A stretch of DNA of 64,000 nt, taken from Wujia chipingensis (GTDB taxonomy: Bacteria; Bacillota; Clostridia; Lachnospirales; Lachnospiraceae). The stretch is taken from positions 2,053,001-2,117,000 of the forward strand of contig NZ_CP060632.1 of NCBI RefSeq assembly GCF_014337155.1, given 5' to 3'. The position numbers were made by a program, and so were the translations under genes. Of the stretch, positions 11,026-42,013 are shown piece after piece; position 1 is the stretch's first letter, and every line of letters starts with the position of its first letter. The notes under the pieces are model-generated. The model was not told the DNA's origin. It was given only the letters and a program-made list of their open reading frames with translations, and searched no databases.

Positions 11026-11257
11026 CGTAATCGCAAAACACGAGCATTATGGTAGGTAAGAGTTGTAGATTATCACATGTTCTTAAGCAGACCATTGTAG
11101 CACATCAGCACTTAACGAACAGAGTAACAATTCGCAGAATTGGTGCTTTGTGAGTTTAGTGTCTGCTATGTGCGGAAGTGAGCGCGAGCGAGTCTGCGTA
11201 GAAATGTGATAATCTGCAACTCGCTACCATCACCTGCATTCGTGTTTTGCTTCACGA
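11026..11257 (+). repeat. Structured dispersed element, copy 3 (upstream of ABC ATPase)
   Basis: Long imperfect arms pair across about 125 bases: GAGTTGTAGATTATCACAT (11060-11078) matches ATGTGATAATCTGCAACTC (11204-11222) at 18 of 19 positions, and GCAAAACACGA pairs with TCGTGTTTTGC further out. Inside lies a core that begins CAGACCATTGTAGCAC and ends GAGCGAGTCTG. It aligns with the cores near 22.2 and 41.9 kb read from the minus strand. The element ends 28 bases before the ATG of the ABC ATPase gene and so would form its 5' leader. Confidence 0.75.
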
Positions 11258-11285
11258 TTCGCAGTCACATAAAAGGAGGAAAATC

Positions 11286-11984
11286 ATGTTCTTACAAATC
11301 AACAATCTTGAAAAGTTCTATGGTGAAAAAGACAACCGTGTACAAGTCTTAAAAGGACTTTCTACCGGTATTGAGAAAGGCGAGATCTGCGTCCTGCTCG
11401 GGCCATCCGGTTCCGGTAAGTCTACCCTGTTGAACATCATCGGTGGCATCGAAAGCTATGATAAGGGAGAGATCATCATCAACGGTGCTGCCATGTCTGC
11501 CATGAACGAAAAGCAGACGACTCTCTACCGACGTGAACACTTAGGTTACGTATTCCAGTTCTATAACCTGATTCCGAACCTGACCGTCAAGGAGAATATC
11601 GAGGTCGGCGCTTACCTCGGAAGCAACCCGCTTGATGTCGATGACCTGCTTCATACACTTGGACTTTGGGAGCATAAGGATAAGATTCCAAGCCAGCTTT
11701 CCGGCGGTCAGCAGCAGCGTACATCCATCGGTCGTGCCATCGTCAAGAATCCGGATCTGCTGCTCTGCGATGAGCCAACCGGCGCCCTTGATTACAATAC
11801 CTCCAAGGATATTCTGAAATTGATTGAAGACGTCAACCGGAAATACGGAAATACCATCATCATCGTTACGCACAACGATGCCATCAAACTCATGGCTGAC
11901 CGTGTGATCAAGCTCCGCGACGGTATGATCCGGAAAGAATATACAAACGAAACAAAGACACCGGCGATGGAATTAGATTGGTAG
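11286..11984 (+). CDS. MacB/LolD-type ABC transporter ATPase
   Basis: This 232-residue ATPase has Walker A GPSGSGKST, Q-loop YVFQFYN, signature LSGGQQQR and Walker B LLLCDEPTGALD, followed by the VTHND switch. The signature and the PTGALD sequence are typical of the MacB/LolD/YxdL group, which powers FtsX-like permeases exporting peptides or antibiotics or remodelling the envelope. The ATG follows AAAGGAGG by seven bases; an earlier in-frame ATG lacks a ribosome site. The permease gene follows after ten bases. The upstream leader contains structured element copy 3. Confidence 0.93.
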   Translation: MFLQINNLEKFYGEKDNRVQVLKGLSTGIEKGEICVLLGPSGSGKSTLLNIIGGIESYDKGEIIINGAAMSAMNEKQTTLYRREHLGYVFQFYNLIPNLTVKENIEVGAYLGSNPLDVDDLLHTLGLWEHKDKIPSQLSGGQQQRTSIGRAIVKNPDLLLCDEPTGALDYNTSKDILKLIEDVNRKYGNTIIIVTHNDAIKLMADRVIKLRDGMIRKEYTNETKTPAMELDW

Positions 11985-11994
11985 GTGAATGCAT

Positions 11995-14301
11995 ATGGCT
12001 GATAAAACAATCAAAAATCCACTGCGTAAACGCATCCTTCGGGATATCAGAAAAGAAAAAGGAAAATACATATCCATCTTTTTGTTTCTGACATTTATGA
12101 TTTCAATCGTCAGTGGTATGCTGGTTACTTCCCTGAGCATGATGCACACCTACGACGATGGTATCGAGACATATAAATTGGAGGATGGACATTTCTCTAC
12201 AAACAGTGAAATCTCTGTCGCTGACCTGCAGAAAATCGCTGACCAGACAGATTCAGGCACAGCAAAAGCAACCATCTACAAACAGTACTTCTATAATTTT
12301 GATTACACCTTTGAAGGTAACAGCAATTATTCCATCCGTCTCTACGAAAACCGTGAGGCGTTGAATACATATTCAGTCTTTGAAGGGCACGCACCGGAGA
12401 AGGACGGAGAACTTGCCATCGACCGCCTCTTTGCAGAAAACAACAATCTCAAAATCGGTGACACCCTCACCTTTGACGGAAAGGATTTAACAATCTGCGG
12501 AACAGTTGCTGTCCCGGATTATAGCTGTCTGTTCGAGAATAACTCTGATTCGATGTTCAGCGCAACGACATTTACCACGGGGTTTGTCACTGCTGATTAT
12601 TTCAAGGAATTCTCCGAAAGCAAGCTTACCTACAGCTTTGCTTATCATTTCTCGGACAGAAGTCTTGATGACCGAGCTTCTTATGACGCAAGCACAAACC
12701 TGATGAATACATTGTCCAAACAGCTCGCTCCACAGGGAAATTATCTGACTGATTTTTTGATGCGTCAGAACAATAAAGCGATCTCATTTACAAGGGAAGA
12801 TATGGATGGCGATACAAACAGCACGATCATGATGCTCTATATCATGATCGCACTACTTGCATTCATCTTCGCACTTATGACTTTCAGCACGATTGAAGCG
12901 GAAGCCGGTGCCATCGGAACCCTGCGTGCATCCGGATATACAAAAGGCGAAATCATCCGGCATTACATGGCTGCACCCACGTATGTATTCCTTGCAGCCG
13001 CAGTGATCGGAAATATCGGCGGTTACACTTGTTTTCGTAAATTCATGGAGGACATGTATTACCATTCCTACTCTCTGCCTGTATTCAAGGTTGTCTGGAA
13101 TGCAAACGCCTTTCTACTTACGACCGTGATTCCGATTGCAATCCTGTTAGTGATCAACTACCTTGCGCTTCGATCAATGCTTGGATTGTCACCGCTTAAC
13201 TTCCTGCGGCATGATCTGTCAAAACGTAAGAAAAAGCATGTGACAAAGCTTCCGAACTTCAAGTTTTTGACAAGATTCCGGATTCGTACAATCCTGCAGA
13301 ACCGCTCCAACTATATCACGATGGCGATTGGTATCCTGATGGCAAATATCCTGTTTATCTTCTCTGCCAGCATGCTTCCAATCTTAAATGACCAGACAGA
13401 CAATGTGCTTGACCACCTGATTGCAAACTATCAATATACACTCAAAGCACCGGTAGAGCTAGACGATTCATCTGCTGAAAAATACTGTCTGACTGCGCTT
13501 GCGGATGATGACGGAAAAGAAGTGCTTGTATATGGAATCGCAGATAATTCAAAGTATCTGACACAGGTTTCTATGCCTACGGAAAAAGGGGATATAATCA
13601 TCTCAAAATCGTTCATGAAACTGAACAATTATAAAGTGGGCGATACGATTAAAATAGTAGAAAAATATGGCGATAAAGAATATTCTTTCCGGATTGCCGG
13701 CAGCTTCAATTACCCGGCGGCCTTCTCCGTATTTATGAGCATTGATAATTACAATGACACATTCGGGAAGGATGCGGATTATTTCACAGGCTATTTCTCT
13801 GACAAAGCGCTGGATGATTTAGATGACAGTTTCATCTACAGTACGATGGGACCTTCGGACTATTCAAAGTTAAGTGATCAGATGAATGATTCGATGGGAC
13901 GTATGATGCCTCTGATGAAATATCTTTCCCTTATTATCTTCGTCATCGTTATCTACCTGCTCTCTAAGATTGTGTTGGAGAAAAATGCGGAATCGATTTC
14001 CCTGACGAAGATTCTCGGTTACAACAACAGAGAAATCGGAAAAATCTACATTATTTCAACCGCGATAGCTGTCCTTGTCAGTGTAGCAATCAGTCTGCCG
14101 CTTTCAACAGTCATCCTGAAGACAATGATTGTCTATCTCTTCCGGACTTTTGATATCTGGCTGGAAAATGTTCATATCGGAACATCTATCTATGTTCAGG
14201 TTGTGATCTGGGATATTGTATGTTACGGATTATTAAGTTTCCTGCAATATAAGAAGATCCGGAAGATTCCTATGGAAGAGGCACTGAAAAACCGGGAGTA
14301 A
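11995..14301 (+). CDS. FtsX-like ABC transporter permease
   Basis: About 768 residues. There is one helix near residue 30 (YISIFLFLTFMISIVSGML), a large extracellular MacB-type domain, three helices around 285-395, a second extracellular domain, and three helices near the C-terminus. This two-FtsX-domain layout fits exporters of the bacitracin/lantibiotic-resistance or lipoprotein-release class. Partner of the ATPase just upstream. Of two nearby ATGs, the second (11995) has AGGTGA at six bases and is preferred. No sensor kinase or response regulator is adjacent, unlike most BceAB loci. Confidence 0.9.
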   Translation: MADKTIKNPLRKRILRDIRKEKGKYISIFLFLTFMISIVSGMLVTSLSMMHTYDDGIETYKLEDGHFSTNSEISVADLQKIADQTDSGTAKATIYKQYFYNFDYTFEGNSNYSIRLYENREALNTYSVFEGHAPEKDGELAIDRLFAENNNLKIGDTLTFDGKDLTICGTVAVPDYSCLFENNSDSMFSATTFTTGFVTADYFKEFSESKLTYSFAYHFSDRSLDDRASYDASTNLMNTLSKQLAPQGNYLTDFLMRQNNKAISFTREDMDGDTNSTIMMLYIMIALLAFIFALMTFSTIEAEAGAIGTLRASGYTKGEIIRHYMAAPTYVFLAAAVIGNIGGYTCFRKFMEDMYYHSYSLPVFKVVWNANAFLLTTVIPIAILLVINYLALRSMLGLSPLNFLRHDLSKRKKKHVTKLPNFKFLTRFRIRTILQNRSNYITMAIGILMANILFIFSASMLPILNDQTDNVLDHLIANYQYTLKAPVELDDSSAEKYCLTALADDDGKEVLVYGIADNSKYLTQVSMPTEKGDIIISKSFMKLNNYKVGDTIKIVEKYGDKEYSFRIAGSFNYPAAFSVFMSIDNYNDTFGKDADYFTGYFSDKALDDLDDSFIYSTMGPSDYSKLSDQMNDSMGRMMPLMKYLSLIIFVIVIYLLSKIVLEKNAESISLTKILGYNNREIGKIYIISTAIAVLVSVAISLPLSTVILKTMIVYLFRTFDIWLENVHIGTSIYVQVVIWDIVCYGLLSFLQYKKIRKIPMEEALKNRE

Positions 14302-14331
14302 TGCTACTTCACGAAAAATATACAGATAAAA

Positions 14332-14368
14332 ACACCCAACTGTTTCTGTGAACAGTTGGGTGTTTTTT
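14332..14368. terminator. Bidirectional terminator between the ABC permease and atpC
   Basis: A perfect 13-base stem (ACACCCAACTGTT) with a six-base loop is flanked by T runs in both directions. It separates the convergent ABC and ATP synthase transcripts. Confidence 0.92.
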
Positions 14369-14379
14369 CATCCTTTTAT

Positions 14380-14793
14380 TTACTTCACTTCGTACCGGTC
14401 ATGTCCCTGCAGTCTCGCCATTGCTCTCGCAAGCGAAGCACGGGATACGTGGTATTCCATGATACTCTGTTTCTGCTGCATCTGCTCGATGGCACGTTCC
14501 TTCGCAGCCTGTGCACGGAACTCGTCGATTTCCTCCGGTTTTTCTGCTGAATAGACAAGTACAACAACCTCATTATTCTTTACCTTCAGAAGTCCGTCGG
14601 AACAGATTGCCACATGCTCTTCTCCATCCGGTGTCCGGAAATGCAGCTCACCGACTTCAATATTCGTCGTCATCTTCTCGTGATGTGCCAGAATTGCCAT
14701 CTGTCCATCATAGCCGGGGAATTTCAATATCTCACATGGTCCATCATAAAACACCCGGTCACAGGCTATGATCTTGAGTGAAAATGTATTCAT
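14380..14793 (-). CDS. atpC: ATP synthase F1 epsilon subunit
   Basis: This 137-residue protein has the N-terminal beta-sandwich (FSLKIIACDRVFYDGPCEIL; GYDGQMAILAHHEKMTTNIEVG) and a C-terminal two-helix region rich in Ala, Arg and Gln (RAQAAKERAIEQMQQKQ). It forms the rotor stalk with gamma and can inhibit ATP hydrolysis. It is the last gene of the operon, with a terminator just beyond it. Confidence 0.95.
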   Translation of the reverse strand: MNTFSLKIIACDRVFYDGPCEILKFPGYDGQMAILAHHEKMTTNIEVGELHFRTPDGEEHVAICSDGLLKVKNNEVVVLVYSAEKPEEIDEFRAQAAKERAIEQMQQKQSIMEYHVSRASLARAMARLQGHDRYEVK

Positions 14794-14814
14794 ACGCCGT
14801 CCCCTTTCTATCCT

Positions 14815-17165
<2,351 letters not shown>

Positions 17166-19696: not shown

Positions 19697-19720
19697 GTTA
19701 CCACCCTGCCTTTCCTGTGA

Positions 19721-19945
19721 TTACTTCAACATTACTATGATCATAAGCGCGATAACGAAACCGTAAATAGCGGTTGCCTCTGCAAGTGCACAACCAAGAA
19801 TCAATGTCTTGTTGATCTTACCTTCTGCCTCCGGCTGTCTTGCGATTGCCTCTGCTGCCTTACCGGTTGCAATACCGATACCAATACCTGCGCCAAGCGC
19901 TCCTAAAACTGCAATACCTGCACCAATTGCGATTATTGTACCCAT
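19721..19945 (-). CDS. atpE: ATP synthase Fo subunit c (rotor ring)
   Basis: The 74-residue hairpin has helix 1 [21 protein letters not shown], the polar loop ARQPEA and helix 2 with the ion-binding Glu at position 56 (ALAEATAIY). Known sodium-type rings have a Gln in helix 1 and Ser or Thr right after the Glu. Here those positions are Ile (GIGIG) and Ala. The ring is therefore predicted to be proton-specific. AAAGGAG precedes the start. Confidence 0.95.
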
Positions 19946-19965
19946 ACTAATTATCTCCTTTTCGT

Positions 19966-21475: not shown

Positions 21476-22048
21476 CTACTCTAATCCAGTCTGTCTGATA
21501 TATTGCTCAATCATTGCGATCGTACCTGCCGTTCCAAGCTTCGAGACATTCAGGCACAGGTCATAATTTTCTGCCATGCCCCATGTCTCCCCGGTATAAT
21601 ATTTGTGGTATGCCGCCCGGCGTTCATCGGTTGCCTGTACAAGCTTCTTCGCCTGGCGCTCCGGGATTCCATGCTTCTTCGCAATCGACTCGATCCGCAT
21701 CGCATCATCCCCGGTCAGGAAGATTGCAAGCTTATCCTTCCGGTCCTTGAATACATAATTACCACATCGACCTAAAATAATACAGTTTTTTCCGTCTAAG
21801 ATTTCGGACAATGCTTTCTTCGGTGTCTCATAAAACACGTTTTCACTCTCTGTCTGGGATATCGTGTACATCAATGTATCCATCGGGGTTTCCCCATAGA
21901 AATCCGGATACCGGTCATACATTCCATATCCTTTTGCAAGCTCTGAGATGACCGACCGATCATAAAATGGAATATGATAGATCTGTTCCAACGCATGACC
22001 GATCTCGTCTCCGCAGCAGCCACATTTTCTACCAATTGTAATAATCAT
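21476..22048 (-). CDS. Cytidylate kinase-like protein
   Basis: This 190-residue protein of the AAA_26 / cytidylate-kinase-like family starts MIITIGRKCGCCGDEIGHAL, where a cysteine-containing loop takes the place of the usual Gly-rich P-loop. NCIILGRCGNYVF and RIESIAKKHGI follow. Such proteins are common in Clostridia next to transporters and regulators; the substrate is unknown. A longer start (GTG 22057) lies inside the ribosome site; AGGAGG is correctly placed for the ATG at 22048. The structured element copy 1 lies directly upstream. Confidence 0.8.
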   Translation of the reverse strand: MIITIGRKCGCCGDEIGHALEQIYHIPFYDRSVISELAKGYGMYDRYPDFYGETPMDTLMYTISQTESENVFYETPKKALSEILDGKNCIILGRCGNYVFKDRKDKLAIFLTGDDAMRIESIAKKHGIPERQAKKLVQATDERRAAYHKYYTGETWGMAENYDLCLNVSKLGTAGTIAMIEQYIRQTGLE

Positions 22049-22074: not shown

Positions 22075-22266
22075 CATATGGTTAAATTCTACTACATTTG
22101 TATGTGACTAACATTTCAACGCAGACACGCTCTCGCTCGGTTCATCACGCAGTGGTACTAAATTCACGTCAAACAAGTTTGCCGTTCATTAAGTACCAGC
22201 GTGCTTCAACGGTCTGCTTGTGAATTGTTAGTCACATACAAATGCATATACATATTCTTAACCATG
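22075..22266 (-). repeat. Structured dispersed element, copy 1 (upstream of the kinase-like gene)
   Basis: Perfect 17-base inverted arms TTTGTATGTGACTAACA (22097-22113) and its complement (22226-22242) extend outward imperfectly to TATGGTTAA / TTAACCATG. The core (22121-22217), read on the minus strand, begins GCAGACCGTTGAAGCACGC and ends GAGCGTGTCTG. Within it CACGC..GGTACT pairs with AGTACC..GCGTG around the hairpin GGCAAAC TT GTTTGAC. It lies between lrgB and the kinase-like gene, both on the minus strand. Confidence 0.8.
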
Positions 22267-22297: not shown

Positions 22298-22990
22298 TTA
22301 CATGAAATTTGCGTAGACGGATGCGAGTACAACGGTCAGGATTCCGGTGACAGCGATTGCCAGACTGCTCATCGCGCCTTCCACTTCGCCCATCTCGATT
22401 GCCTTGGCTGTACCGATTGCATGGGATGAAGACCCAAGTGCAAGTCCCTTGGAGATTGGTTCCGTAATACGGAAGAGCTTACATATGAACTCGCCTAAGA
22501 TGTTGCCAATCACACCTGTTACTACGATGACGGCAACCGTGATTGTCACATAACCGCCAAGTTCTTCCGATACTCCCATACCAATAGCTGTCGTAATGGA
22601 CTTCGGAAGCATCGTGACATATTCCTGATGGGTAAGTCCCATGAGCTTCGACAGTACAAATACCGTCGTCAGACTCGTAAGTACACCTGCTGTGATTCCA
22701 AGCATCACCGCTTTGACATTCCGCTTTAGTAACTGCCACTGCTCATACAGCGGAATCGCCAGGCAGACCGTAGCCGGTGTCAGAAACCAGCTTAAGTACA
22801 CGGCACCCTTGTTGTACGTATCGTAATCAATATGCGCACATACAAGCACGATGATCGTAAGGATTATCGAGATGAGCAATGGATTGAAGATTCCAAGCTT
22901 AAACTTTTTCTTTAATAATAAACCTGCCAGATACGCAAGCAGACTGAGTGTCACACCTGCGAACATGGATGTCTGAAATAAATCTTTCAT
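22298..22990 (-). CDS. lrgB: LrgB family membrane protein
   Basis: This 230-residue multi-helix protein includes PLLISIILTI, TPATVCLAIPLYEQ, MLPKSITTAIGMGVSEELGG and LGSSSHAIGTAKAIEMGEVEGAMSSLAI, the conserved LrgB/CidB/PftB signature. With LrgA it forms a complex first linked to murein hydrolase control and later shown in Bacillus and Streptococcus mutans to move pyruvate. A longer frame begins upstream inside lrgA, but the ATG at 22990 overlaps the lrgA stop (ATGA) and has AAGGAG eight bases before it. Confidence 0.9.
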   Translation of the reverse strand: MKDLFQTSMFAGVTLSLLAYLAGLLLKKKFKLGIFNPLLISIILTIIVLVCAHIDYDTYNKGAVYLSWFLTPATVCLAIPLYEQWQLLKRNVKAVMLGITAGVLTSLTTVFVLSKLMGLTHQEYVTMLPKSITTAIGMGVSEELGGYVTITVAVIVVTGVIGNILGEFICKLFRITEPISKGLALGSSSHAIGTAKAIEMGEVEGAMSSLAIAVTGILTVVLASVYANFM

Positions 22991-23364
22991 ATCTCCTGCT
23001 CCTTTGCCTTTTCTTTTGCTTTGGATTTCTTGATCACACATTGGGATACACGTCCGGTTGCACCCATAACCGCAACGAGTGCTACAACCGTGATCACACT
23101 GACCGGTACTAACACCGGTTTCAATGTACCCCATGATGCCATCAGACCAACCCCTGCGGGGATGAACATGACCGGCATGATCTCGATCAGGAATTTCCCG
23201 ACATCCTTCACTGCATCGAGCTTAATGATTCCACTGAGCAACCCGATAAATAAAATCACCATGCCATAGATGCTTGCCGGTATCGGCAATGGCAGGAAGT
23301 ATTTTAACAACTCTCCTAAAAAGGAGATAAACAAGATTAACAGAAACTGTCGTAAGTATTTCAT
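22987..23364 (-). CDS. lrgA: LrgA / CidA holin-like membrane protein
   Basis: A 125-residue four-helix protein. It starts with the family pattern QFLLILFISFLGELLKYFLPLPIPASIYGMVILF and continues VGKFLIEIMPVMFIPAGVGLM. It ends in a Lys-rich cytoplasmic tail. It is the first gene of an lrgAB operon, with its own near-consensus promoter and palindromic operator upstream. GGGAG precedes the ATG. Confidence 0.9.
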   Translation of the reverse strand: MKYLRQFLLILFISFLGELLKYFLPLPIPASIYGMVILFIGLLSGIIKLDAVKDVGKFLIEIMPVMFIPAGVGLMASWGTLKPVLVPVSVITVVALVAVMGATGRVSQCVIKKSKAKEKAKEQEI

Positions 23365-27044: not shown

Positions 27045-27115
27045 GCAGGTATAGTTCATTGGTAGAACACCAGCTTCCCAAGCTGGATAGGCGGGTTCGA
27101 TTCCCGTTACCTGCT
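27045..27115 (+). tRNA. tRNA-Gly (anticodon CCC)
   Basis: A 71-base cloverleaf has acceptor GCAGGTA / TACCTGC, D-arm with TTCATTGGTAGAA, anticodon stem CCAGC / GCTGG around TTCCCAA, and T-arm GCGGGTTCGATTCCCGT. The 3' CCA is not encoded, and a T run follows directly and can act as terminator. Confidence 0.95.
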
Positions 27116-27190
27116 TTTTTACGTGATAGAACTGCAAGATTTCGTGAATCAAGTTTCATTCACTTTCACAGTGAAAGAAATAGTATCGAT

Positions 27191-27230
27191 AAAAGAGGAA
27201 AGGTACCAGTTAAAGTACCTTTCCTCTTTT
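27191..27230. terminator. Bidirectional terminator downstream of flotillin gene
   Basis: Perfect 16-base arms (AAAAGAGGAAAGGTAC) surround an eight-base loop, with A and T runs at the stem base. It separates tRNA-Gly (plus strand) from the convergent flotillin gene. Confidence 0.92.
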
Positions 27231-27261
27231 ATCTTAAAAGTTTTCTGTTTTACACATTATC

Positions 27262-28773
27262 TTACTCCACAGTTGTATCTACGGAAGTTCCCGCCTCTGC
27301 AGGAGCTTCTACCTTGATTCCATCCAGGCCTGTGATGTTCACATTCTTGTTAACCTTTGCATCGTATGTATTTGCACGCATAATATCCGCGATATCGATA
27401 CCTGTTACTTCCTTCACAGACTCCATTGTCTTTGCAAGGACTTGTGGCACATACGACCCCATCGAACCGACACCGGAACCTTCGCCGTTGCCGTCGATGA
27501 TCGTAACCTTGTCGATTGTAGAGAGTGGCTCTGCGATTGCCTTTGCCATCTCCGGCAATGCCTTCACGATCATTTCCACCATCGCTGCCTGACCATACTT
27601 CTTCATCGCTTCGGCTTTCTTCTCTAAGGCTTCTGCCTCTGCAAGACCTTTGGCTTCGATTGCCTTCGCCTCTGCCTCGCCGACTGCACGGATACCTGCT
27701 GCCTCCTGCTGCTTTGCGAAAAGCTCTGCCTCTGCCTGTGCCTTCTTCGCCTCAGCTTCCTGCTGCTTCTCAAACTTATCTGCCTCGGCATTTCTCTGAC
27801 GCTTGTAAAGCTCCGCATCTGCCTGCTGCTGTCTTGCGAACTTGTCCGCCTCCGCTTTCTTACGAATATCCGCATCGAGGGACTGCTCCATAACCTCGGC
27901 TTCCTTCTTCTTCAGGTCAACTTCCTTCTCCTGACGTGCGATATCTGCCTCGGTCTTTGTAACCTCGATTGTCTTACGCTGTGCTTCCTTCTGAATCTCG
28001 TAAGCCGCATCTGCTTCCGCATTCTTCGTATCTTCGATTGTCTTTAATTCTGCCTTCTTGATAGAAAGCTCATTCTGCTTCACGGCAATTTCCGTATCGG
28101 ATAATACCTTTGCATCGTTCGCTTCTTTTCTCGCCTGTGCCTGTGCGATCGCTACATCACGGTCTGCGTTTGCCTTGGCGATACTTGCATTCTTCTGGAT
28201 TGCTGCCATGTTATCCTGACCAAGCGCGATAATCAGGTCATTCTGATCCTCTACATGCTGGATGTTGCAGGAAATAATCTCAATACCCAGACGATTCATA
28301 TCCACCTGCGCCTTCTCCTGCACCTGATCACCGAAGGACTTACGATCGTTACACAACTCCTTCAGACTGATCGTACCGATAATCTCACGCATATTACCCT
28401 GCAGAGAATCCACCAGTGCTTCCATAATCTGCGGTTCCTTCATATTCAGGAAATTCTTCATGGCAAGTTGCATACCTTCTTCATCCGTACGGATCTTAAC
28501 TTTCGCAACTGCATCAATGTTAACACCGATGAAATCCAGTGTCGGAACATAATCGTCCGTCTTGATATCGATACTGATCTGCTTGATCAACAGTTCATCC
28601 TTCCGCTCGAAGAACGGAAGCTTCAAGCCTGCTTTACCAATCAGAATCTTCGGTGTCTTTCTTAAACCGGAAATGATATACGCCTTATCCGGTGGTGATT
28701 TGACATAACTGGTAAATAAAATGACCAGCAATGCCACGATAATGATAATAATAGCAATTGTTGAACCTGACAT
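27262..28773 (-). CDS. floT: Flotillin-family membrane scaffold protein
   Basis: This 503-residue protein has one N-terminal membrane segment (TIAIIIIIVALLVILFTSYV), an SPFH domain (KAYIISGLRKTPKILIGKAG; VAKVKIRTDEEGMQLAMKNFL; NMREIIGTISLKELCNDRKSF), then a very long Ala/Glu/Lys/Gln coiled coil of about 200 residues (KKAQAEAELFAKQQEAAG). Flotillins organise membrane domains and influence fluidity and secretion in bacteria. No NfeD-type partner is adjacent, so it appears to be a single-gene unit. AGGGAGG precedes the ATG. Confidence 0.92.
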   Translation of the reverse strand: MSGSTIAIIIIIVALLVILFTSYVKSPPDKAYIISGLRKTPKILIGKAGLKLPFFERKDELLIKQISIDIKTDDYVPTLDFIGVNIDAVAKVKIRTDEEGMQLAMKNFLNMKEPQIMEALVDSLQGNMREIIGTISLKELCNDRKSFGDQVQEKAQVDMNRLGIEIISCNIQHVEDQNDLIIALGQDNMAAIQKNASIAKANADRDVAIAQAQARKEANDAKVLSDTEIAVKQNELSIKKAELKTIEDTKNAEADAAYEIQKEAQRKTIEVTKTEADIARQEKEVDLKKKEAEVMEQSLDADIRKKAEADKFARQQQADAELYKRQRNAEADKFEKQQEAEAKKAQAEAELFAKQQEAAGIRAVGEAEAKAIEAKGLAEAEALEKKAEAMKKYGQAAMVEMIVKALPEMAKAIAEPLSTIDKVTIIDGNGEGSGVGSMGSYVPQVLAKTMESVKEVTGIDIADIMRANTYDAKVNKNVNITGLDGIKVEAPAEAGTSVDTTVE

Positions 28774-28899
28774 ACAAAAACCCTCCCTAACAACAAGTTA
28801 ATTGATTGCTATGCGACTCAGATCGCATATTTTCTTTGGTGCAAAATTCACATTCCTGCATCTATTCAATATTGTACCATGTATGTGTGAAAATCACTA

Positions 28900-29196
28900 T
28901 TACATTTTTCTGCATTTTTCGTACATTTTCTGTACAATAATGCATTTTTCATTAAGGAATCGATTGTTCGAAGAAAGCAGCTGTAGCATCTTATTAAATG
29001 AATAAATCGTTGTATCTGTCGGTACATCCACCACGTCATCAAAATCATTTCCTAGCAGAATCTCCGGTTTTGTATTCAGCGCAATTCCCCGGATATCCAC
29101 ATCAGATCCTTCTTTATCTATGCCATACGCATGACTTCCACCCAATGTCAGAAGGATAATATTCTCTCCTAGGTACCATCCGAAGTCCCAACTCAT
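28900..29196 (-). pseudogene. Truncated nucleotidyltransferase (DNA polymerase beta superfamily)
   Basis: The 98-residue frame contains LTLGGSHAYGIDKEGSDVDIRGIAL, where GGSHAYG and the DxD pair are the metal and nucleotide motif of the polymerase-beta-like superfamily. It also has IYSFNKMLQLLSSNN, normally followed by an N..E.LG segment and about 200 more residues. Homology stops at that point and a stop follows 20 residues later. No clear ribosome site precedes the ATG. I read it as a decayed gene fragment. Confidence 0.7.
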
Positions 29197-29215
29197 CCTG
29201 TTCTGGCATAACTAA

Positions 29216-29262
29216 GCCCTCCCCGATATAATAAATACTATATTATATCGGGGAGGGCTTAA
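29216..29262. terminator. Long perfect hairpin terminator
   Basis: Twenty-base perfect arms (AAGCCCTCCCCGATATAATA) flank a seven-base loop. It lies between the nucleotidyltransferase remnant and the DUF3592 gene, downstream of the latter. Confidence 0.8.
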
Positions 29263-29299
29263 ATTATCTATGTATTCTTTTATTACACACAGATTCTGT

Positions 29300-30010
29300 T
29301 TATTTGTCACGCTTCTTGAATATCCTGTTATAAATCTCAATTCCCTTGTCAGGATTCTGGTTCATCCAGAATACGAGATAGCCGCCAATCAGGAACAAAG
29401 CCCCTCCTATTATAACAAGATAGACAGACATTGTCGGGATTTTCCTTCCATCCGTTATTTTGGTTGGTTTCTCCGGATCATAATATACCGTTACCTTCTG
29501 CCCTATCTGCATATCATGTCCATCACCCACATATATCTCATTATATGTTTTTCCATCTACTTCATAATCCACAAAGATGGTGCAAGTTGCATGATTTCTA
29601 TGCATACGTTTTTCTGTTACAATACCTGGTACGGTCTCAGCTTTTCTTAAAAACAGATCATTATGTACATATGCCGCAAGTCCCGCGAACAACAAAGCCA
29701 GCCCGACAAACATAACTATCATCACTTCCTTACGGACGGACTTTTTTCTTATTTCTTTGTCACCTAAATCTTCTCCAAAGATTCGTGCTTGTTTTTCCTC
29801 TGACAAAATATATGGATTTCTATCTGTTGCAGATGAAAGCTTTCCATCCGGTTGATAAACAGGCTTATCGATTGGAGTTGTCCTTTTGGATTCAATGACA
29901 TATGGATCCTGTTCTAAATCGCTGAACTCCCCCAGTGAAGGATCTTTTAATTCTTCCTGCATATCTTTCATGCGTTTTGTGGAATCTTCATCTTTTAACT
30001 TTAATGACAT
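29300..30010 (-). CDS. DUF3592 membrane protein
   Basis: This 236-residue protein has a long charged cytoplasmic N-terminus (about 95 residues, many Asp, Glu and Lys) and a helix (EVMIVMFVGLALLFAGLAAYV). An extracytoplasmic beta domain follows, of DUF3592 type (VPGIVTEKRMHRNHATCTIFVDYEVDGK; GQKVTVYYDPEKPTKITDG), then a second helix (MSVYLVIIGGALFLIGGYLV). Function unknown. GGAGGAGG precedes the start. It appears monocistronic. Confidence 0.8.
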   Translation of the reverse strand: MSLKLKDEDSTKRMKDMQEELKDPSLGEFSDLEQDPYVIESKRTTPIDKPVYQPDGKLSSATDRNPYILSEEKQARIFGEDLGDKEIRKKSVRKEVMIVMFVGLALLFAGLAAYVHNDLFLRKAETVPGIVTEKRMHRNHATCTIFVDYEVDGKTYNEIYVGDGHDMQIGQKVTVYYDPEKPTKITDGRKIPTMSVYLVIIGGALFLIGGYLVFWMNQNPDKGIEIYNRIFKKRDK

Positions 30011-34214: not shown

Positions 34215-34350
34215 ATTGTTGCTCCTTTATTTTAAATCACTTGTTATCTTAACTTGTTTTTTTGTCTTATGCCCGATATAATAATTCTGTCACACCGGGC
34301 ATGATTTCATTCTCTGTGACATATTCTATACTACCAAGGCAGGTGATACT

Positions 34351-34623
34351 ATGTTTCGTATCTGGGGAAAAATAATGAAAGATAACCGTCTCGTCAAAGA
34401 CCATACCGTCTGCATCGAGGACTATACCATGACGCGTACAAAAAAGGTGTATGCCGCCCTTGACGAGCTATGCTACACCTTTGATTTAGCGAAGCCTATC
34501 TGGTTAAAATCCAACCAGCAGGATTTTATTCGTCATGCAAGAACCCGGTTCACGCAGGATAATTTCATCGAATCCATCGATTTTGATTATCTTGACTTTC
34601 AGGTCATCGAGGAGGACTACTGA
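34351..34623 (+). CDS. Small conserved hypothetical protein
   Basis: This 90-residue soluble protein begins MFRIWGKIMKDNRLVKDHTV, continues TKKVYAALDELCYTFDLAKPIWLKSN and ends FDYLDFQVIEEDY. The Trp/Phe-rich middle and acidic end suggest a compact domain; I do not recognise it beyond a general Lachnospiraceae conserved hypothetical. AGGTGA lies before the ATG. Its stop codon touches the stop codon of the convergent chemoreceptor gene, with no terminator between. Confidence 0.65.
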   Translation: MFRIWGKIMKDNRLVKDHTVCIEDYTMTRTKKVYAALDELCYTFDLAKPIWLKSNQQDFIRHARTRFTQDNFIESIDFDYLDFQVIEEDY

Positions 34624-36528: not shown

Positions 36529-36761
36529 AATGTATGTACCCCATGTCTTTCGTTCTAACAAGTTTCCGTTGCGCATAAATATACGCCATGTCATATATGT
36601 TTAAAATTATAGCAAATTTGTAATATAAAGTCCATAGACAAAATCCACTTATCCGCGCTTTCTACTTGTATATTCTACCTAAAAATGCTATCTTAATTCA
36701 AAGAACCAAAGACTTGAACGGATGCAAAAATCGCAATCGAAAACCAATCAAAGGAGTTATT

Positions 36762-37388
36762 ATGTTTCAGATTGAACATATCTCAAAATCATACGGAAAA
36801 AAACAGGTGTTGAACGATGTGTCTTTTCCCGTCCCGGAAGGCTGTGCCATCGGGATTTTAGGCGTCAACGGCTCCGGGAAATCCACGTTGCTTTCCTGCA
36901 TTGCAAAAAAATATGCCGGAACACCAGATGTAAGAATCGGCTATGTCCCACAGGAAAATCCGCTCTATGATGAGCTAAAGCCTGTGGATAATCTGCGTAT
37001 GTGGACGAACAAACGCAAATCCGAAATCCTGCAGGCATTGCAGGCACCACCGCTCGCCCAGCTTGGAATCCAGACATTTCTGGATACTCCGGTCAAAAAT
37101 ATGTCCGGTGGTATGAAAAAGCGGCTCAGTCTCGCGTGTGCCCTGCTCGATGCACCACAGATTCTGCTGATGGATGAGCCATTTGCAGCACTGGATCTTC
37201 CAGCCAAACAGGATGCCATGCAGTTTATGCGTTATTATTTAAGTCTTGGAAATTCCATTGTGATTGCCTCCCATGAGGAAGCCGTTTTTCAGTTCTGCCA
37301 CACAGTCTATCTTCTGAAAAATGGCACACTCTTCGATGCGTCGCATCTGCCAGAGGGCACTAATTATATTGATCTGCTAAGAAATTAA
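36762..37388 (+). CDS. ABC transporter ATPase
   Basis: This 208-residue ATPase has Walker A GVNGSGKST, signature MSGGMKKRLS and Walker B ILLMDEPFAALD, followed by IVIASHEE. Its size and GGMKKR signature fit ABC-2 type exporters. AAAGGAG lies seven bases before the chosen ATG, whereas the frame's first ATG at 36666 has none. Two permease genes follow within 20 bases each. Confidence 0.92.
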   Translation: MFQIEHISKSYGKKQVLNDVSFPVPEGCAIGILGVNGSGKSTLLSCIAKKYAGTPDVRIGYVPQENPLYDELKPVDNLRMWTNKRKSEILQALQAPPLAQLGIQTFLDTPVKNMSGGMKKRLSLACALLDAPQILLMDEPFAALDLPAKQDAMQFMRYYLSLGNSIVIASHEEAVFQFCHTVYLLKNGTLFDASHLPEGTNYIDLLRN

Positions 37389-37403
37389 ATTTAAGAGGAA
37401 CTT

Positions 37404-38519
37404 ATGTCTCACATCCATATGTTTTTCAATTTCATCCGCGCCAACTGCAAACGGCTGTTACACTATCTGCCATCGATGTTTGTCTCATTGTTACTGTTGC
37501 TTCTCCTGACTGGAACCGCAGGATTTTATCTATCCAGACATCTATATAAGGAAAATGTATTTTCTGCGATTTCCATCGGATACTATCTGCCACAGGACGA
37601 CAACCTGGACCTAAACCAGCTTGGCATTGGTATGTTACAGGATTTAGAAGGAATGGAGGAAACCGTCCAGCTCGTACAGGTAAACAGCGTCGAGGAAGGC
37701 TATAACATGCTTGCTTCGCATGAAATCCTGTATCTGATCATCGTCCCGGAGCAGTTTTTCTCTGGAATTATGGACAGTACAAATGTACCGCTTGATATCG
37801 TTGTTTACGACAACAGCTCCATATCCTCTTATATCATCAACGAATTGTTCATGTCCTACGCCGGACTGCTCGGAACTGCTCAGGCTGGTATTTACAGCGG
37901 CCTTGACACGACACGTGCCCACGAATTTACACCGGAACAGATACGTGAGCTTTCCAACCGTGTGAACTTCGTATACCTAGACCGTGTCATGAACAAGACA
38001 AATTATATGAAGACGATACAGGCAGAGGATGCAGGAAGTGTGACATTCACACAGCACTATGCCGCATTTGCGATTATATTAAGTCTCTGTTTTCTTGCAT
38101 TCCTGCTGATTCCATATTTACAGGGAACCGGAAATGGCATCTGCGAATGCATGAAGCTGTATCACCTAAACCGCGGACATATACTGGCAGCAAACACGCT
38201 CCACACGTTTCTTGCTCTGTATATCCTGTTCCTGCCGTGCTATATCGGAATCTCCATCTGGATGGGGCACGCAAACCTGAACGGACTTCTGACGATCATC
38301 CCTGCACTGCTTTTGATTGCACTGCTGATCGCCGGAATCGCAACCTTTTCCAGAAGTACCTTTTCCGCAAATATCTGTCTGTTATTTGTTGTGCTGGTGC
38401 TTGCCTACTGCGGTGGCGGACTTCTACCGGATGTTCTGCTGCCAAAGGTGATACAGCAGATCCGTCCGTATCTGCCGGGAACGTATGTAATGCAGATTTT
38501 CTGCCACGCACTTTATTAA
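37404..38519 (+). CDS. ABC-2 type permease subunit 1
   Basis: This 371-residue protein has one N-terminal helix (LPSMFVSLLLLLLLTGTAGF), about 165 residues of external domain (YYLPQDDNLDLNQLGIGMLQDL; VPEQFFSGIMDSTNVPLDIVVYDNSS) and five or six C-terminal helices. This is the ABC-2 plan with a YhgE-like extracellular domain. It pairs with the next gene as a heterodimer. Substrate unknown. AGAGGAA precedes the ATG. Confidence 0.82.
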   Translation: MSHIHMFFNFIRANCKRLLHYLPSMFVSLLLLLLLTGTAGFYLSRHLYKENVFSAISIGYYLPQDDNLDLNQLGIGMLQDLEGMEETVQLVQVNSVEEGYNMLASHEILYLIIVPEQFFSGIMDSTNVPLDIVVYDNSSISSYIINELFMSYAGLLGTAQAGIYSGLDTTRAHEFTPEQIRELSNRVNFVYLDRVMNKTNYMKTIQAEDAGSVTFTQHYAAFAIILSLCFLAFLLIPYLQGTGNGICECMKLYHLNRGHILAANTLHTFLALYILFLPCYIGISIWMGHANLNGLLTIIPALLLIALLIAGIATFSRSTFSANICLLFVVLVLAYCGGGLLPDVLLPKVIQQIRPYLPGTYVMQIFCHALY

Positions 38520-38537
38520 ACATTTGGGAGTTTTGTT

Positions 38538-39470
38538 ATGAACCGACTGATTGTCGCATGGAAACGAATTTTACATCGAAAGCTATATTGGTGCATGCTG
38601 GGCGTCCTGCTCATCTTAACTGGAATCTATGCATTGCTTCCAGCGAAAAGCCAGTCCACAGAAATCCGTGTTGCCGTATATCTGGAAGATACCAGTGCGT
38701 ATACGACACAGTTCAAAGAGGAATTAGATGCCAGTGCCTCGCTCTATCAGTTTTATTATGTAGATGCGTCCACAGATGTAATCCGGGATGTACAGGCGGG
38801 TGATGCAGAATGCGGTTTTGTCCTGCCAGATGGATTTTTCTCCGGCTACATTGCAGGCTCCGGGGAACCAAAGGTTTCCTTGTATGAGACAAGTGCAAGT
38901 ACACTTTCCTCTGCCATCTGCGAGACATTCTTCCATTATATCTTCAAGGTTGCATCCCCACAGATTCTGGTTGACACGATCGACGATGCAGCGTTATCTG
39001 AAGAGTTAAAAAGCCGCATGCAGGCATATATGAACAGTGACACAATCTTCCGTATGTCCTCTGTCACAGACGGTGCCTACGATTATAAGGAAAATACCTA
39101 TCGTATCCAGCTTCCAATCTACGAATGCACCTGTCTGCTCGTCCTGTTTGCTTCTCTGTTCAGCCTGATGTTGTTCTTACAGGATCAGGAACGTGGCATC
39201 TACATCGCACTTTCTGGCAAACGCAGATATGGTATTTTATGCACGGGACTTCTGGCTGGCATCCTTCCAATCTACGGAATCGGCATGCTATGCAACGGCA
39301 TCACCTACGGAACTGCAACTCTGTTACAGGTAACACTTGTCAGTCTGCTTGCCTATCTTCTGTCGCTTGTACTTTCGGTGTTTATCAAAAAAAGCCGGAC
39401 ACTTGCCAAGTGGATCCCGGTGCTTTTACTGATTACCATCGTATATTTCTTCGTGAATTATATTCTATGA
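38538..39470 (+). CDS. ABC-2 type permease subunit 2
   Basis: This 310-residue protein has the same plan as its neighbour: helix near 20-33 (YWCMLGVLLILTGIYALL), external domain (VAVYLEDTSAYTTQF; FVLPDGFFSGYIAGSG; VSLYETSAS) and C-terminal helices ending ILLITIVYFFVNYIL. The PDGFFSG and PEQFFSG motifs in the two proteins show that they are paralogues. Ribosome site GGGAG. A bidirectional terminator follows. Confidence 0.82.
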   Translation: MNRLIVAWKRILHRKLYWCMLGVLLILTGIYALLPAKSQSTEIRVAVYLEDTSAYTTQFKEELDASASLYQFYYVDASTDVIRDVQAGDAECGFVLPDGFFSGYIAGSGEPKVSLYETSASTLSSAICETFFHYIFKVASPQILVDTIDDAALSEELKSRMQAYMNSDTIFRMSSVTDGAYDYKENTYRIQLPIYECTCLLVLFASLFSLMLFLQDQERGIYIALSGKRRYGILCTGLLAGILPIYGIGMLCNGITYGTATLLQVTLVSLLAYLLSLVLSVFIKKSRTLAKWIPVLLLITIVYFFVNYIL

Positions 39471-39510
39471 TTTCATATTTTTTAATTATTGGAACATACA
39501 TTTAATATGA

Positions 39511-39554
39511 TACAAAAACAGGACGAGATCATCCAAAGATCTCGTCCTGTTCTT
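39511..39554. terminator. Bidirectional terminator overlapping the yigZ 3' end
   Basis: Perfect 12-base arms CAGGACGAGATC / GATCTCGTCCTG with a seven-base loop and T runs on both strands. The last codons of yigZ are part of the stem. Confidence 0.88.
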
Positions 39555-40143
39555 CGATCTGCGCTCTTGCATTCGTCGCATCGGTTATCTCTTTTAAGAT
39601 TGCTTTCGCATCGCCAACCGGAATATGTACCGTAAAGACCACATCCTCTGCGAATTCCGTGTTGATGATCGCAACCTGTCTCGTATTCAGGATATATTGT
39701 ATTTTCCCCATATCCGTATAATTCGTCCGGATCAAAACAGGAAGCAACTGTTGCATTAACTTCGTCGTACACGCTTCTAGGGCTTCCTTTGTTGTCTGCG
39801 TATATGCACGGACAAGTCCGCCCGTACCAAGCAGTGTACCGCCAAAATACCGTGTCACAACCACACAGATATCATGGATTCCAGAATTCTGAATCAACTC
39901 CAGCATCGGCTTTCCTGCAGTGCCCTGTGGTTCTCCATCATCCGAGAACCGGAGCAGCGGCATCTCAGCGCCCACGGAAAATGCAAAGCAGTTATGCCGT
40001 GCATCGTAATGCTTCTTCTTAATCTTCTCGATAAATGCATACGCCTCTTCTTCTGTCTCAACCGGGGCAATCTGCGCAATAAAACGGGATTTCTTCTCGA
40101 CAATCTCGCCCTCTGCACCTTCGATCAGTTTGATATAATCCAT
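39529..40143 (-). CDS. yigZ: YigZ/IMPACT family protein
   Basis: This 204-residue protein has an N-terminal UPF0029 domain (KKSRFIAQIAPVETEEEAYAFIEKIKKKHYDARHNCFAF; DDGEPQGTAGKPML; VVVTRYFGGTLLGTGGLVRAY) and a C-terminal DUF1949 domain (IRTNYTDMGKIQYIL). Related to yeast Yih1 and human IMPACT; the bacterial role is unclear, perhaps in translation or protein turnover. AAAGGGA precedes the ATG. Confidence 0.92.
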   Translation of the reverse strand: MDYIKLIEGAEGEIVEKKSRFIAQIAPVETEEEAYAFIEKIKKKHYDARHNCFAFSVGAEMPLLRFSDDGEPQGTAGKPMLELIQNSGIHDICVVVTRYFGGTLLGTGGLVRAYTQTTKEALEACTTKLMQQLLPVLIRTNYTDMGKIQYILNTRQVAIINTEFAEDVVFTVHIPVGDAKAILKEITDATNARAQIEEQDEIFG

Positions 40144-40163
40144 AACGTCCCTTTCAGTTCCGT

Positions 40164-40619
40164 CTACTTTGTATCCAGAAGCTTCTTCAACTCACTCATA
40201 AACGTATCCGCATCCTTGAACTGACGGTAGACGGATGCGAAACGCACATATGCAACCTGATCCAGATCACGAATCTGATCCATTACAATCTCACCAATCT
40301 TCTCGCTTTCGATTTCACGCACGCCGAGATTGAAAATCTTGTTCTCGATCTCATCCACACATGCCTCGATCTGATCCACAGATACCGGACGTTTGTGACA
40401 GGAACGTACCACTCCTGACTCAATCTTGGAACGGTCATATGTCTCACGATTCTTATCCTTCTTGATTACAATCAGAGGAATCGTCTCTACCTTCTCATAC
40501 GTAGTAAAACGCTTTCCACATTCATCACACTGTCTTCTTCTACGGATTGCCTCGTTGTCATCTGCTGGTCTTGAGTCAATCACACGCGTATTATCATCTC
40601 CGCAAAATGGGCACTTCAT
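40164..40619 (-). CDS. nrdR: Transcriptional repressor NrdR
   Basis: This 151-residue protein has the zinc ribbon MKCPFCGDDNTRVIDSRPAD..RRRRQCDECGKRFTTYE and an ATP-cone domain (IVIKKDKNRETYDRSKIESGVVRSCHKRPVS). It represses ribonucleotide reductase operons depending on bound ATP or dATP. The longer frame upstream lies within the ylmC-like gene; AAAGGAA before the ATG at 40619 fixes the start. No nrd gene is in the window. Confidence 0.96.
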   Translation of the reverse strand: MKCPFCGDDNTRVIDSRPADDNEAIRRRRQCDECGKRFTTYEKVETIPLIVIKKDKNRETYDRSKIESGVVRSCHKRPVSVDQIEACVDEIENKIFNLGVREIESEKIGEIVMDQIRDLDQVAYVRFASVYRQFKDADTFMSELKKLLDTK

Positions 40620-40623
40620 ATGT

Positions 40624-40890
40624 TTATTCCTTTCCTCCCTGAATTTTCCGTATATCGCAGGCATCAATATCGACCAGAACAATGTCCGGTCCGATACGCA
40701 CAATGTTGCAATACCGGATGTAATATTCCGTTCCCGAACCAAAGCAGGAAAATAATTTTCCCGGTCCCGGTACGATGATTGCAAGTATCTTCCCTGTCTC
40801 ACAATCAAACTCGACATCGGCAACATAGCCGAGCCGCCTGCAATCTTTGCAGTTTATAACTTCTTTTTCTTTTAATTCTAAAAAGCGCAT
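40624..40890 (-). CDS. ymxH: YlmC/YmxH family PRC-barrel protein
   Basis: An 88-residue PRC-barrel protein: LKEKEVINCKDCRRLGYVADVEFDCETGKILAIIVPG, then IRYCNIVRIGPDIVLVDID. The family occurs in spore-forming Firmicutes, and many members are under sporulation sigma control. Placed four bases upstream of nrdR, a common order in Clostridia. Confidence 0.88.
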   Translation of the reverse strand: MRFLELKEKEVINCKDCRRLGYVADVEFDCETGKILAIIVPGPGKLFSCFGSGTEYYIRYCNIVRIGPDIVLVDIDACDIRKIQGGKE

Positions 40891-40929
40891 CGCATACCTT
40901 CGCTTTTTATAGTTAGTATATGCGAAAGC

Positions 40930-41805
40930 TTATCGCTTGTCACCTTCAAAAATAAGTACCATCGTTCCCGGTCCAACGTGTGCTCCGACGATTGGTCCGA
41001 CCTCGCTCATAATGATCTTATTTGGATGATACTTCTCCTCTACCTTTGCCCGGACATACTCCGCATCCTCCGGACAATCCGCGTGACAGATCAGTACTAC
41101 ATCCTGCTTGTCTGCATAGCCTCCTGTACAGATATCCATCTCTGCAAGCAGCTGGTTTAACGCTTTCTTACGTCCACGCACTTTACTCTCAGCTGCAAGT
41201 CTTCCCTCTGTATCCACATGCAGAACCGGCTTCAACTGGATCATGCCACCGATAACGGCTGCCGTCTTGGAGATACGTCCACCTCTCTGCAAATAGGTCA
41301 GATCATCCACCGTGAATTTGTGCACGATACGATGCTTCAGCTCTTCGAGTGCCTGCATGTTCTCTTTGACGGACATGCCTTTTTTCTTGTTCTCAATCGC
41401 ATGATAGATCAGCAGTCCATGTCCACCACTCGCGCAGATGGAATCAAACACACAGATTTCCGCATCCGGATATTTCTCCTGCATCTCTTCCTTACATACA
41501 AACGCGTTGTTGATCGTACTGCTGATACCGGAGGAAAGACAGGTAAATAATACGTCTTTTCCTGCGGACAGTGCCTTCTCAAACTCCTCTTCAATATCGT
41601 TGATGTTCGGCGCTGCTGTCTTTGTTCCCTGTCCCGCACGCATGCGGTCATAGAACTCTTTCTTTGTCAGTGTTTTTTCTCTTCCATCAAATACTTCATC
41701 GCCGATTTCAAAGCTGATTGGAATAATCACGACGCCCTGTTCCTCGGCATAGCCGACTGGTAAATCGTTCGATGAATCAGTGATAATAACGTAATCTCTT
41801 CCCAT
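40930..41805 (-). CDS. DegV family fatty-acid-binding protein
   Basis: A 291-residue DegV fold: MGRDYVIITDSSNDLPVGYA, FDGREKTLTKKEFYDRM, TAAPNINDIEEEFEKALSAG and FTCLSSGISSTINNAFV, with the lipid-binding Ser/Thr residues. It ends SEVGPIVGAHVGPGTMVLIFEG. Such proteins (FakB) hand fatty acids to the kinase FakA, which is not in the window. Of several in-frame ATGs, the one at 41805 has GGGAG at the right distance; earlier ones run into the structured element copy 2. Confidence 0.92.
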   Translation of the reverse strand: MGRDYVIITDSSNDLPVGYAEEQGVVIIPISFEIGDEVFDGREKTLTKKEFYDRMRAGQGTKTAAPNINDIEEEFEKALSAGKDVLFTCLSSGISSTINNAFVCKEEMQEKYPDAEICVFDSICASGGHGLLIYHAIENKKKGMSVKENMQALEELKHRIVHKFTVDDLTYLQRGGRISKTAAVIGGMIQLKPVLHVDTEGRLAAESKVRGRKKALNQLLAEMDICTGGYADKQDVVLICHADCPEDAEYVRAKVEEKYHPNKIIMSEVGPIVGAHVGPGTMVLIFEGDKR

Positions 41806-41822
41806 ACTCTCTCCCATCTTAT

Positions 41823-42013
41823 GTATTAATATCGTGATATACAAGTCGTACATAATTACGAATTCCACACAGACACGCTCTCGCTCGGTTCATCACGCAG
41901 TGGTACTAAATTCACGGCAAACAAGTTTGCCATTCATTAAGTACCAGCGTGCTTCAACGGTCTGTGTCAGAATTGTAATTATGTACAACTTGATACACTT
42001 TATTATATTAACA
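41823..42013 (-). repeat. Structured dispersed element, copy 2 (upstream of degV)
   Basis: The arms GTACATAATTACGAATTC and GAATTGTAATTATGTAC (one bulge) extend outward through CAAGT / ACTTG to TTAATAT / ATATTAA. The core (about 41870-41964), read on the minus strand, is nearly identical to copy 1. Its central hairpin is the perfect palindrome GGCAAACTTGTTTGCC. It lies between rnfB and degV, both on the minus strand, 17 bases before the degV start. Confidence 0.8.

What the first reader, a model, noticed from the sequence alone, without database searches (positions are those of the whole stretch)
11026..42013. Three-copy structured element with variable but self-complementary arms, always just upstream of a gene
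Copies lie at about 11026-11257 (plus), 22075-22266 (minus) and 41823-42013 (minus). The core CAGACC-R-TTG-W-AGCAC...GTCTG is near-identical in the two minus-strand copies and diverged in the third. The flanking arms are unrelated in sequence between copies, yet within each copy they are inverted repeats (17/17, about 16/18 and 18/19 at the inner part). Inside the core, CACGC/GCGTG and GGTACT/AGTACC in two copies become CACAT/ATGTG and AGCACT/AGTGTC in the third: compensatory changes. All three are in the sense direction, about 17-48 bases before the start of an ABC ATPase, a cytidylate-kinase-like gene and degV. A plain insertion element would conserve its ends, and a plain terminator would not conserve a core. 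Candidate classes are a structured 5' leader RNA, a processing or stability element, or a non-autonomous mobile hairpin. I do not recognise it as a named family.
Basis: seen in the sequence. Interest (0 to 1): 0.88.

Follow-up and report, generated by a model that had tools for sequence, protein, structure and literature searches.

The report
Mobile hairpin RNA of Lachnospiraceae
The three repeats are copies of an unnamed DNA hairpin, widespread in one bacterial family, that encodes a conserved RNA fold, comes and goes between genes, and can be replaced at the same spot by another, already catalogued hairpin RNA.

Summary
The three copies belong to an unnamed dispersed family with a conserved, covarying RNA-like core and long self-complementary arms. 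Across 44 copies 96.2% of cells pair and 34 of 37 pairs change on both sides. Of 41 copies, 34 have well-paired arms; 1.6% of foreign arm combinations do. No Rfam family matches the window copies. The family is in 37 of 37 genus genomes (1-51 copies) and 121 of 299 sampled family genomes. It is not a fixed leader: copy 3 is absent from G001, copy 1 from G007, and at copy 2 three relatives carry Rfam TwoAYGGAY instead. In nine related copies Rfam GA-cis sits in the element's GNRA loop. 'Sense to co-directional genes' holds in the window's clade (53 sense, 6 antisense), not elsewhere (21, 27). Best reading: a non-autonomous mobile foldback element selected as RNA, one of a set of interchangeable, nesting hairpin RNAs. 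The mobilising enzyme and any host role are unknown.

The parts
11026..11257 (+).
   Evidence: Sequence and fold; G007 lacks window 10966-11269
11078..11205 (+). Copy 1, core fold (divergent CACAT/ATGTG subtype)
   Evidence: R1 match 97.5 bits
22075..22266 (-). Copy 2, foldback element; G001, G007 and G042 carry TwoAYGGAY at this site
22113..22226 (-). Copy 2, core fold
   Evidence: R1 match 119.3 bits
41823..42013 (-). Copy 3, foldback element; absent in G001, present in G007, present with a nested GA-cis in UBA5902
41861..41974 (-). Copy 3, core fold
   Evidence: R1 match 120.1 bits
42015..42021 (-). 7-base direct repeat ACGATAT, upstream copy; single in the G001 empty site
41829..41835 (-). 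7-base direct repeat ACGATAT, downstream copy
10911..10939 (+). Promoter-like TTGACA-17-TATTTT upstream of copy 1, which would place copy 1 in a transcribed 5' leader
   Evidence: By eye; no promoter scan was run
11286..11984 (+). Gene after copy 1: ABC transporter ATPase
   Evidence: PF00005, 4.3e-36
21476..22048 (-). Gene after copy 2: cytidylate kinase-like
   Evidence: PF13189, 7.9e-46
40930..41805 (-). Gene after copy 3: DegV
   Evidence: PF02645, 3.7e-67
22298..23134 (-). Gene before copy 2: LrgB family, same strand
   Evidence: PF04172, 3e-83
42022..42807 (-). Gene before copy 3: 4Fe-4S protein, same strand; 30 nt from degV in the G001 empty site (counted by eye)

Best explanation
The three copies are members of an unnamed family of non-autonomous mobile foldback elements of the Lachnospiraceae, very roughly 180-240 bp (ends not exactly fixed). 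SHOWN: copies share a conserved, covarying branched core with a GNRA hairpin inside long arms that pair with themselves; copies are dispersed, up to 51 per genome; sites are occupied, empty or occupied by another hairpin RNA (TwoAYGGAY) in close relatives; a further RNA, GA-cis, is found inserted in the element's GNRA loop, with unfilled orthologs. SUPPORTED: selection acts on the sense-strand RNA, because loops keep to GNRA and G-U mismatches in the arms outnumber A-C overall. INFERRED: an unidentified enzyme acting in trans mobilises the element, using the core or the folded hairpin as its handle and leaving short direct repeats; the arms are held to pairing but not to sequence; element positions are hot spots where one hairpin can replace or enter another. 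Where it is transcribed in sense between genes it adds a hairpin to the mRNA (predicted -87 to -111 kcal/mol for the window copies with flanks). If that does anything for the host it is probably to shield, process or uncouple neighbouring cistrons (for instance by RNase III), as a side effect; this last step is a guess.
For: Covariation. Own versus foreign arms. GNRA in 139 of 148 copies with the 2-bp stem, six GNRA subtypes; 162 copies examined, and 10 of the 14 without the stem carry an insert there. Arm mismatches G-U:A-C 172:105 (groups 91:55, 58:29, 17:15, 6:6). Copies and spread. Empty sites: copy 3 in G001, copy 1 in G007. TwoAYGGAY at the same site at four loci: copy 2, L049/L222, L048/L217, L100/L219. 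GA-cis in nine copies (L045, L056; L054, L055, L096, L111; L109, L113, L122; L045 and L055 are orthologs) with an unfilled ortholog at three loci: L071/L054, window copy 3/L122, L070/L096. Direct repeats of 9 nt or more beside 19 of 155 copies, against 8 with one flank reversed and 7.75 shuffled.
Against: No mobilising enzyme was found; the one family tested, Y1_Tnp, is in 8 of 37 genus genomes and missing from copy-rich ones. Direct repeats are 7 nt (copy 3) and 9 nt with one mismatch (copy 1, G001 against G007), not one length; the 19 include orthologs and repeats inside the arms. Since G007 and UBA5902 have copy 3, the G001 empty site may be a deletion between direct repeats; G007 at L034 reads like a deletion scar. 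In two of four groups G-U does not exceed A-C. Of 68 one-sided arm changes between orthologs 43 broke the pair. Within the related set, 23% of foreign arm combinations still reached 14 matched bases (own: 90%). The sense bias in the clade (G001 alone 23:1) hints at more than selfish mobility, though leading-strand bias was not separated. Near-identical cores with different arms in one genome (copies 2 and 3; ten G139 cores differing by 0-3 of 106) are not explained by drift, since orthologs show arms only about 2.2 times as diverged as cores.
Confidence: 0.7

Rival explanations
1. A cis-regulatory leader RNA (riboswitch, attenuator or protein-binding leader) with a regulon.
For: All three window copies are sense and close to start codons; 53 sense against 6 antisense among co-directional gene pairs in the window's clade; conserved unpaired core bases and GNRA loops.
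Against: Three unrelated downstream genes; copies absent or replaced by TwoAYGGAY in close relatives; 1 to 51 copies among genomes of one genus; 21 sense against 27 antisense outside the clade.
Confidence: 0.1
2. A DNA-level palindromic repeat or MITE with no RNA function; arm complementarity is kept by template switching between the two arms during replication.
For: Direct repeats and inverted-pair composites with shared ends in SC0385 (by eye) and G159; template switching would also give paired changes.
Against: GNRA loops with six subtypes; overall excess of G-U over A-C in the sense strand; a branched core whose short helices covary in 34 of 37 pairs, which arm-to-arm template switching does not predict.
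Confidence: 0.14
3. Only the core is mobile and it enters the loops of existing hairpins, so that the arms belong to the target.
For: Near-identical cores with different, self-complementary arms in one genome (G139; window copies 2 and 3); GA-cis and another domain do sit in the GNRA loop.
Against: At the window's two empty sites no hairpin made of the element's arms is left (by eye); outer ends recur near a fixed distance on the left in 7 of 83 clade copies, and in one copy of another genus, L173.
Confidence: 0.1
4. REP/REPIN-type repeats moved by a Y1 (RAYT) transposase.
For: Extragenic, palindromic, many copies, sometimes in inverted pairs.
Against: Y1_Tnp found in 8 of 37 genus genomes and in none of G007, G042, G043, G044, G052, which have 32-51 copies; units are some five to ten times the 20-40 bp given for REPs in the abstract of PMC3733652 (listing).
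Confidence: 0.03

Closest known systems
TwoAYGGAY RNA (Rfam RF01731)
   Same: Occupies the same sites in relatives; many copies per genome (34 in G001, 25 in G007); also in inverted pairs. [quoted passage not shown] by eye this element has both.
   Different: Different core; the window elements do not match its model, nor do 8 related loci at E up to 10. PMC2864571 (table passage) rates it a probable RNA, probably not cis-regulatory, while Rfam types it Cis-reg. The passages that I read do not mention mobility.
GA-cis RNA (Rfam RF02987)
   Same: Same genomes, many copies (81 in G047, 47 in G042); sits in this element's GNRA loop in nine copies.
   Different: An 88-position domain, absent from the three window copies. 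It also overlaps TwoAYGGAY matches: inside one at G008 C1, and partly, with weak scores, at G042 C62 and C109.
MITEs
   Same: Short, dispersed, intergenic; direct repeats beside some copies; inverted-pair composites with shared ends.
   Different: Conserved covarying core with a GNRA loop; the outer parts are the least conserved; no transposase with matching ends found.
NEMIS/Correia and ERIC repeats (recalled, no call)
   Same: Intergenic hairpins co-transcribed with genes, by recall.
   Different: No branched core conserved across many genera, by recall.

Membership tests
Rfam TwoAYGGAY RF01731 | Covariance-model score at or above gathering | tested here: not met
   A tRNA is the only gathering-level match in the window
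Rfam GA-cis RF02987 | Covariance-model score at or above gathering | tested here: not met
   Not in the window copies; met only by the nested domain in nine related copies
Any other Rfam 15 family | Match to one of 4227 models | tested here: not met
   Gathering level on the window; E up to 10 on 8 related loci, where apart from the nested GA-cis no family overlaps the core
MITE | Short, dispersed in many copies, too short to encode a transposase | tested here: met
   unit of about 200 bp
MITE | Target-site duplication of fixed length | tested here: inconclusive
   7 and 9 nt at two sites; 19 of 155 copies with repeats of 9 or more against about 8 expected
MITE | Terminal inverted repeats shared with an autonomous transposon | tested here: inconclusive
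   Ends recur; in seven G159 stretches no transposase was recognised by reading open frames, and the one frame sent to Pfam had no match
REP/REPIN | RAYT (Y1) transposase in the genome | tested here: not met
   8 of 37 genus genomes, absent from several copy-rich ones
Riboswitch or cis-regulatory leader | Consistent class of downstream genes and conserved position | tested here: not met
   Three unrelated downstream genes (no others were annotated); polymorphic sites
Riboswitch or cis-regulatory leader | Ligand binding or expression effect | not testable with these tools
   Needs bench work

The most novel reading that the evidence does not exclude
This element, TwoAYGGAY and GA-cis are one guild of mobile RNAs that recognise structure, not sequence: they move as folded hairpins, enter the loops of other hairpins (GA-cis in the GNRA loop) and compete for the same hairpin-prone intergenic sites, so that several 'candidate regulatory RNAs' in Rfam are selfish RNA-structured elements.
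Probability: 0.3. Interest if true: 0.9.

Novelty: new variant of a known kind. Interest (0 to 1): 0.74.

Why it matters
A structured RNA found in all 37 genus genomes searched, in up to 51 copies, and in about two fifths of 299 sampled family genomes has no Rfam match. Its swaps with TwoAYGGAY and the nesting of GA-cis suggest one explanation, mobility, for two catalogued RNAs of unknown function, and give natural presence/absence pairs with which to test what a large hairpin between genes does to expression.

Tried and rejected
Arms as relics of a pre-existing target hairpin: L036 looked like an insertion in a hairpin loop with a 12-nt duplication, but the outer repeat sits near the usual terminal distance (by eye), so the duplication probably lies inside the element; dropped as an example. 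Y1/RAYT mobiliser: disfavoured. Carriage by phages or plasmids: no exact match of one pattern in viral contigs, no blastn match of the copy-2 core in plasmids or phages (limited sensitivity). Autonomous partner in G159: shared ends TAAATTAnGGTTTA in many places, no transposase recognised. The first pattern search in relatives saw many copies only in G001 and G007; the covariance model found them genus-wide. MAFFT of the arms gave no usable register.

Papers: searches are. I saw passages of PMC11701678, PMC2864571, PMC7657543 and PMC4333381; all others only as listings. That I know of no description of this family or of the swap rests on these searches of one open-access library. The 2017 paper that I recall as defining GA-cis was not among the ten listed.

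Rows dropped: five partial antisense matches and L129 (element at the record's edge); L081 (cut off) and two antisense partials. 188 records became 156 after removing identical ones; 9 more lacked a neighbour. Searches used 162 (156 plus six more of G139). Genes are longest open frames, not a trained gene finder, and frames over the core were masked. Clade counts include orthologs of one site; G001 alone gives 23:1. The 'alignable arms' cut (30%) equals the random level, so the 9.5% arm divergence may include replaced arms; 36 of 40 pairs passed it. One search used 24 of those 40 pairs, some sharing a site. The seven polymorphic sites are my count; two further rows (L036 second element/L089, L228 second element/L079) were not examined.

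One search, a filing without all fields, was turned back.

Full report
What is there. The three repeats at 11026-11257 (+), 22075-22266 (-) and 41823-42013 (-) are real. Each folds into one long hairpin with a branched tip. The window's own genome is not held.

Structure. From 31 copies of the window, G001 and G007 I built a model of the core (R1: 112 positions, 37 pairs): inner arm pairs; a stem CAGAC/GTCTG; a short stem CRTT/AA-bulge-YG in which R-Y covaries; a long stem with what by eye is a tandem G-A loop, ending in a hairpin of variable length; and a 2-bp hairpin closed by a tetraloop. On these copies 97.0% of cells pair and 19 pairs change on both sides (shuffles 10.2). On 44 copies from 39 sources, the window's three included, 96.2% of cells pair, 34 of 37 pairs change on both sides, covariation 0.634 against 0.187 (the alignment is fitted to the model, and relatedness is not removed). 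The tetraloop is GNRA in 139 of 148 copies with the stem; 162 were examined, and of the 14 without it ten carry an insert there.

Arms. Just outside the core the arms of a copy pair with each other (34 of 41 copies reach 10 of 12 pairs in the best of nine registers) and rarely with those of other copies (1.6%). In a larger, more related set matched by alignment over 40 nt, 90% of own and 23% of foreign combinations reach 14 matched bases, so the arms keep some common ancestry. Within the window's clade an outer TTGCGAAAC lies 44-46 nt left of the core model in 7 of 83 copies; on the right GTTTCGCAA is found in 7 of 83 at 37-90 nt; two of the other 72 copies have both, one (L173) in another genus, one (L147) in the same genus. 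Arm mismatches are G-U 172 and A-C 105, as expected if the sense RNA is selected; two of four groups show no difference (17:15, 6:6). Over 24 ortholog pairs, 849 paired positions had 68 one-sided changes (43 of them breaking the pair) and 10 two-sided, 7 keeping it; 2.3 two-sided are expected by independence.

Spread. R1 matches 37 of 37 genus genomes with 1 to 51 copies at E 0.01 or less (102 candidates scored per genome), 121 of 299 family genomes at 0.001 (12 candidates scored, stricter filters), and 27 of 295 order genomes at 0.0001, all 27 in the same family (the sample holds many genomes of that family).

Not fixed in place. Copy 3: G001 lacks it; the window has 179 more bases and a second ACGATAT. 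G007 has the element with similar arms; UBA5902 has it with an 83-nt insert in the GNRA loop that Rfam names GA-cis. Because two other relatives have copy 3, the G001 state may be a loss. Copy 1: G007 lacks it; G001 has an element at the same place with other arms and a core differing at 25 of 109 aligned positions. Copy 2: G001, G007 and G042 have, between flanks 89-98% identical, another long hairpin, TwoAYGGAY (the G042 copy contains masked Ns and scores 64.6 bits). Three further G001 copies have TwoAYGGAY in G007 at the same site. So of seven polymorphic sites compared, four hold TwoAYGGAY and three are empty or scarred; two more were not examined. With 25-34 TwoAYGGAY copies in a genome of nearly 3 Mb that is hard to put down to chance; I computed no probability.

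Nesting. GA-cis lies at the GNRA hairpin in nine copies (two are orthologs), with an unfilled ortholog at three loci. In L093, L319 and L332 a different domain of about 90 nt, without an Rfam match, occupies that loop. In SC0385 and G159 the element comes in inverted pairs 172-362 bp apart (for positions where listed, 29, 96), with shared ends; TwoAYGGAY is paired similarly in G048 and G020.

Context. Of 156 distinct copies, 147 have two called neighbours: 74 sense between co-directional genes, 33 antisense, 24 convergent, 16 divergent. In the window's clade 53 sense and 6 antisense; elsewhere 21 and 27; G001 alone 23 and 1. A bias toward the leading strand could contribute; I did not separate it.

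Mechanism. Shown: conserved RNA-like fold, many copies, polymorphic sites, exchange with TwoAYGGAY, host of nested RNAs. Inferred: mobilised in trans. Unexplained: nearly identical cores with different arms within a genome. Ten G139 cores differ from each other at 0-3 of 106 positions while their arms differ widely; yet between species orthologous arms are only about twice as diverged as cores (9.5% and 4.3%, with the caveat on its cut). Gene conversion restricted to the core, or arms renewed on insertion, are the candidates.

Against my reading: no enzyme; direct repeats of varied length; possible losses instead of gains; a G-U excess missing in two groups; the sense bias.

Judgement. A new RNA family by the tests made here; the same kind of thing as TwoAYGGAY and GA-cis, and MITE-like in behaviour; not a member of either Rfam family.

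Noticed in passing
L093, L319, L332 (about 90 nt in the GNRA loop of the element): A second kind of structured insert (AGGAGGGACCCA...TGGGAGGATGCC) in the loop that GA-cis also enters; no Rfam match.
   Followed up: partly
L155, downstream of the element at 1501-1655: Just 3' of the arms lies an inverted copy of the element's own 5' half, as if made by a template switch (by eye).
   Followed up: no
L177-L186 (G254): Ten near-identical copies differ mainly in four arm bases next to the core, with paired changes such as aata/tatt, acga/tcgt, cata/tatg and some imperfect ones.
   Followed up: no
L045 versus L055: Orthologous copies with the same right arm (0 of 40 changes) but a left arm differing at 16 of 40.
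   Followed up: no
G047: 81 GA-cis matches in one genome, some in tandem; the hosts of most were not examined.
   Followed up: no
window 27119-29312: About 2.2 kb that G007 lacks between aligned flanks.
   Followed up: no
window 27045-27115: tRNA, the only Rfam gathering-level match in the window.
   Followed up: no
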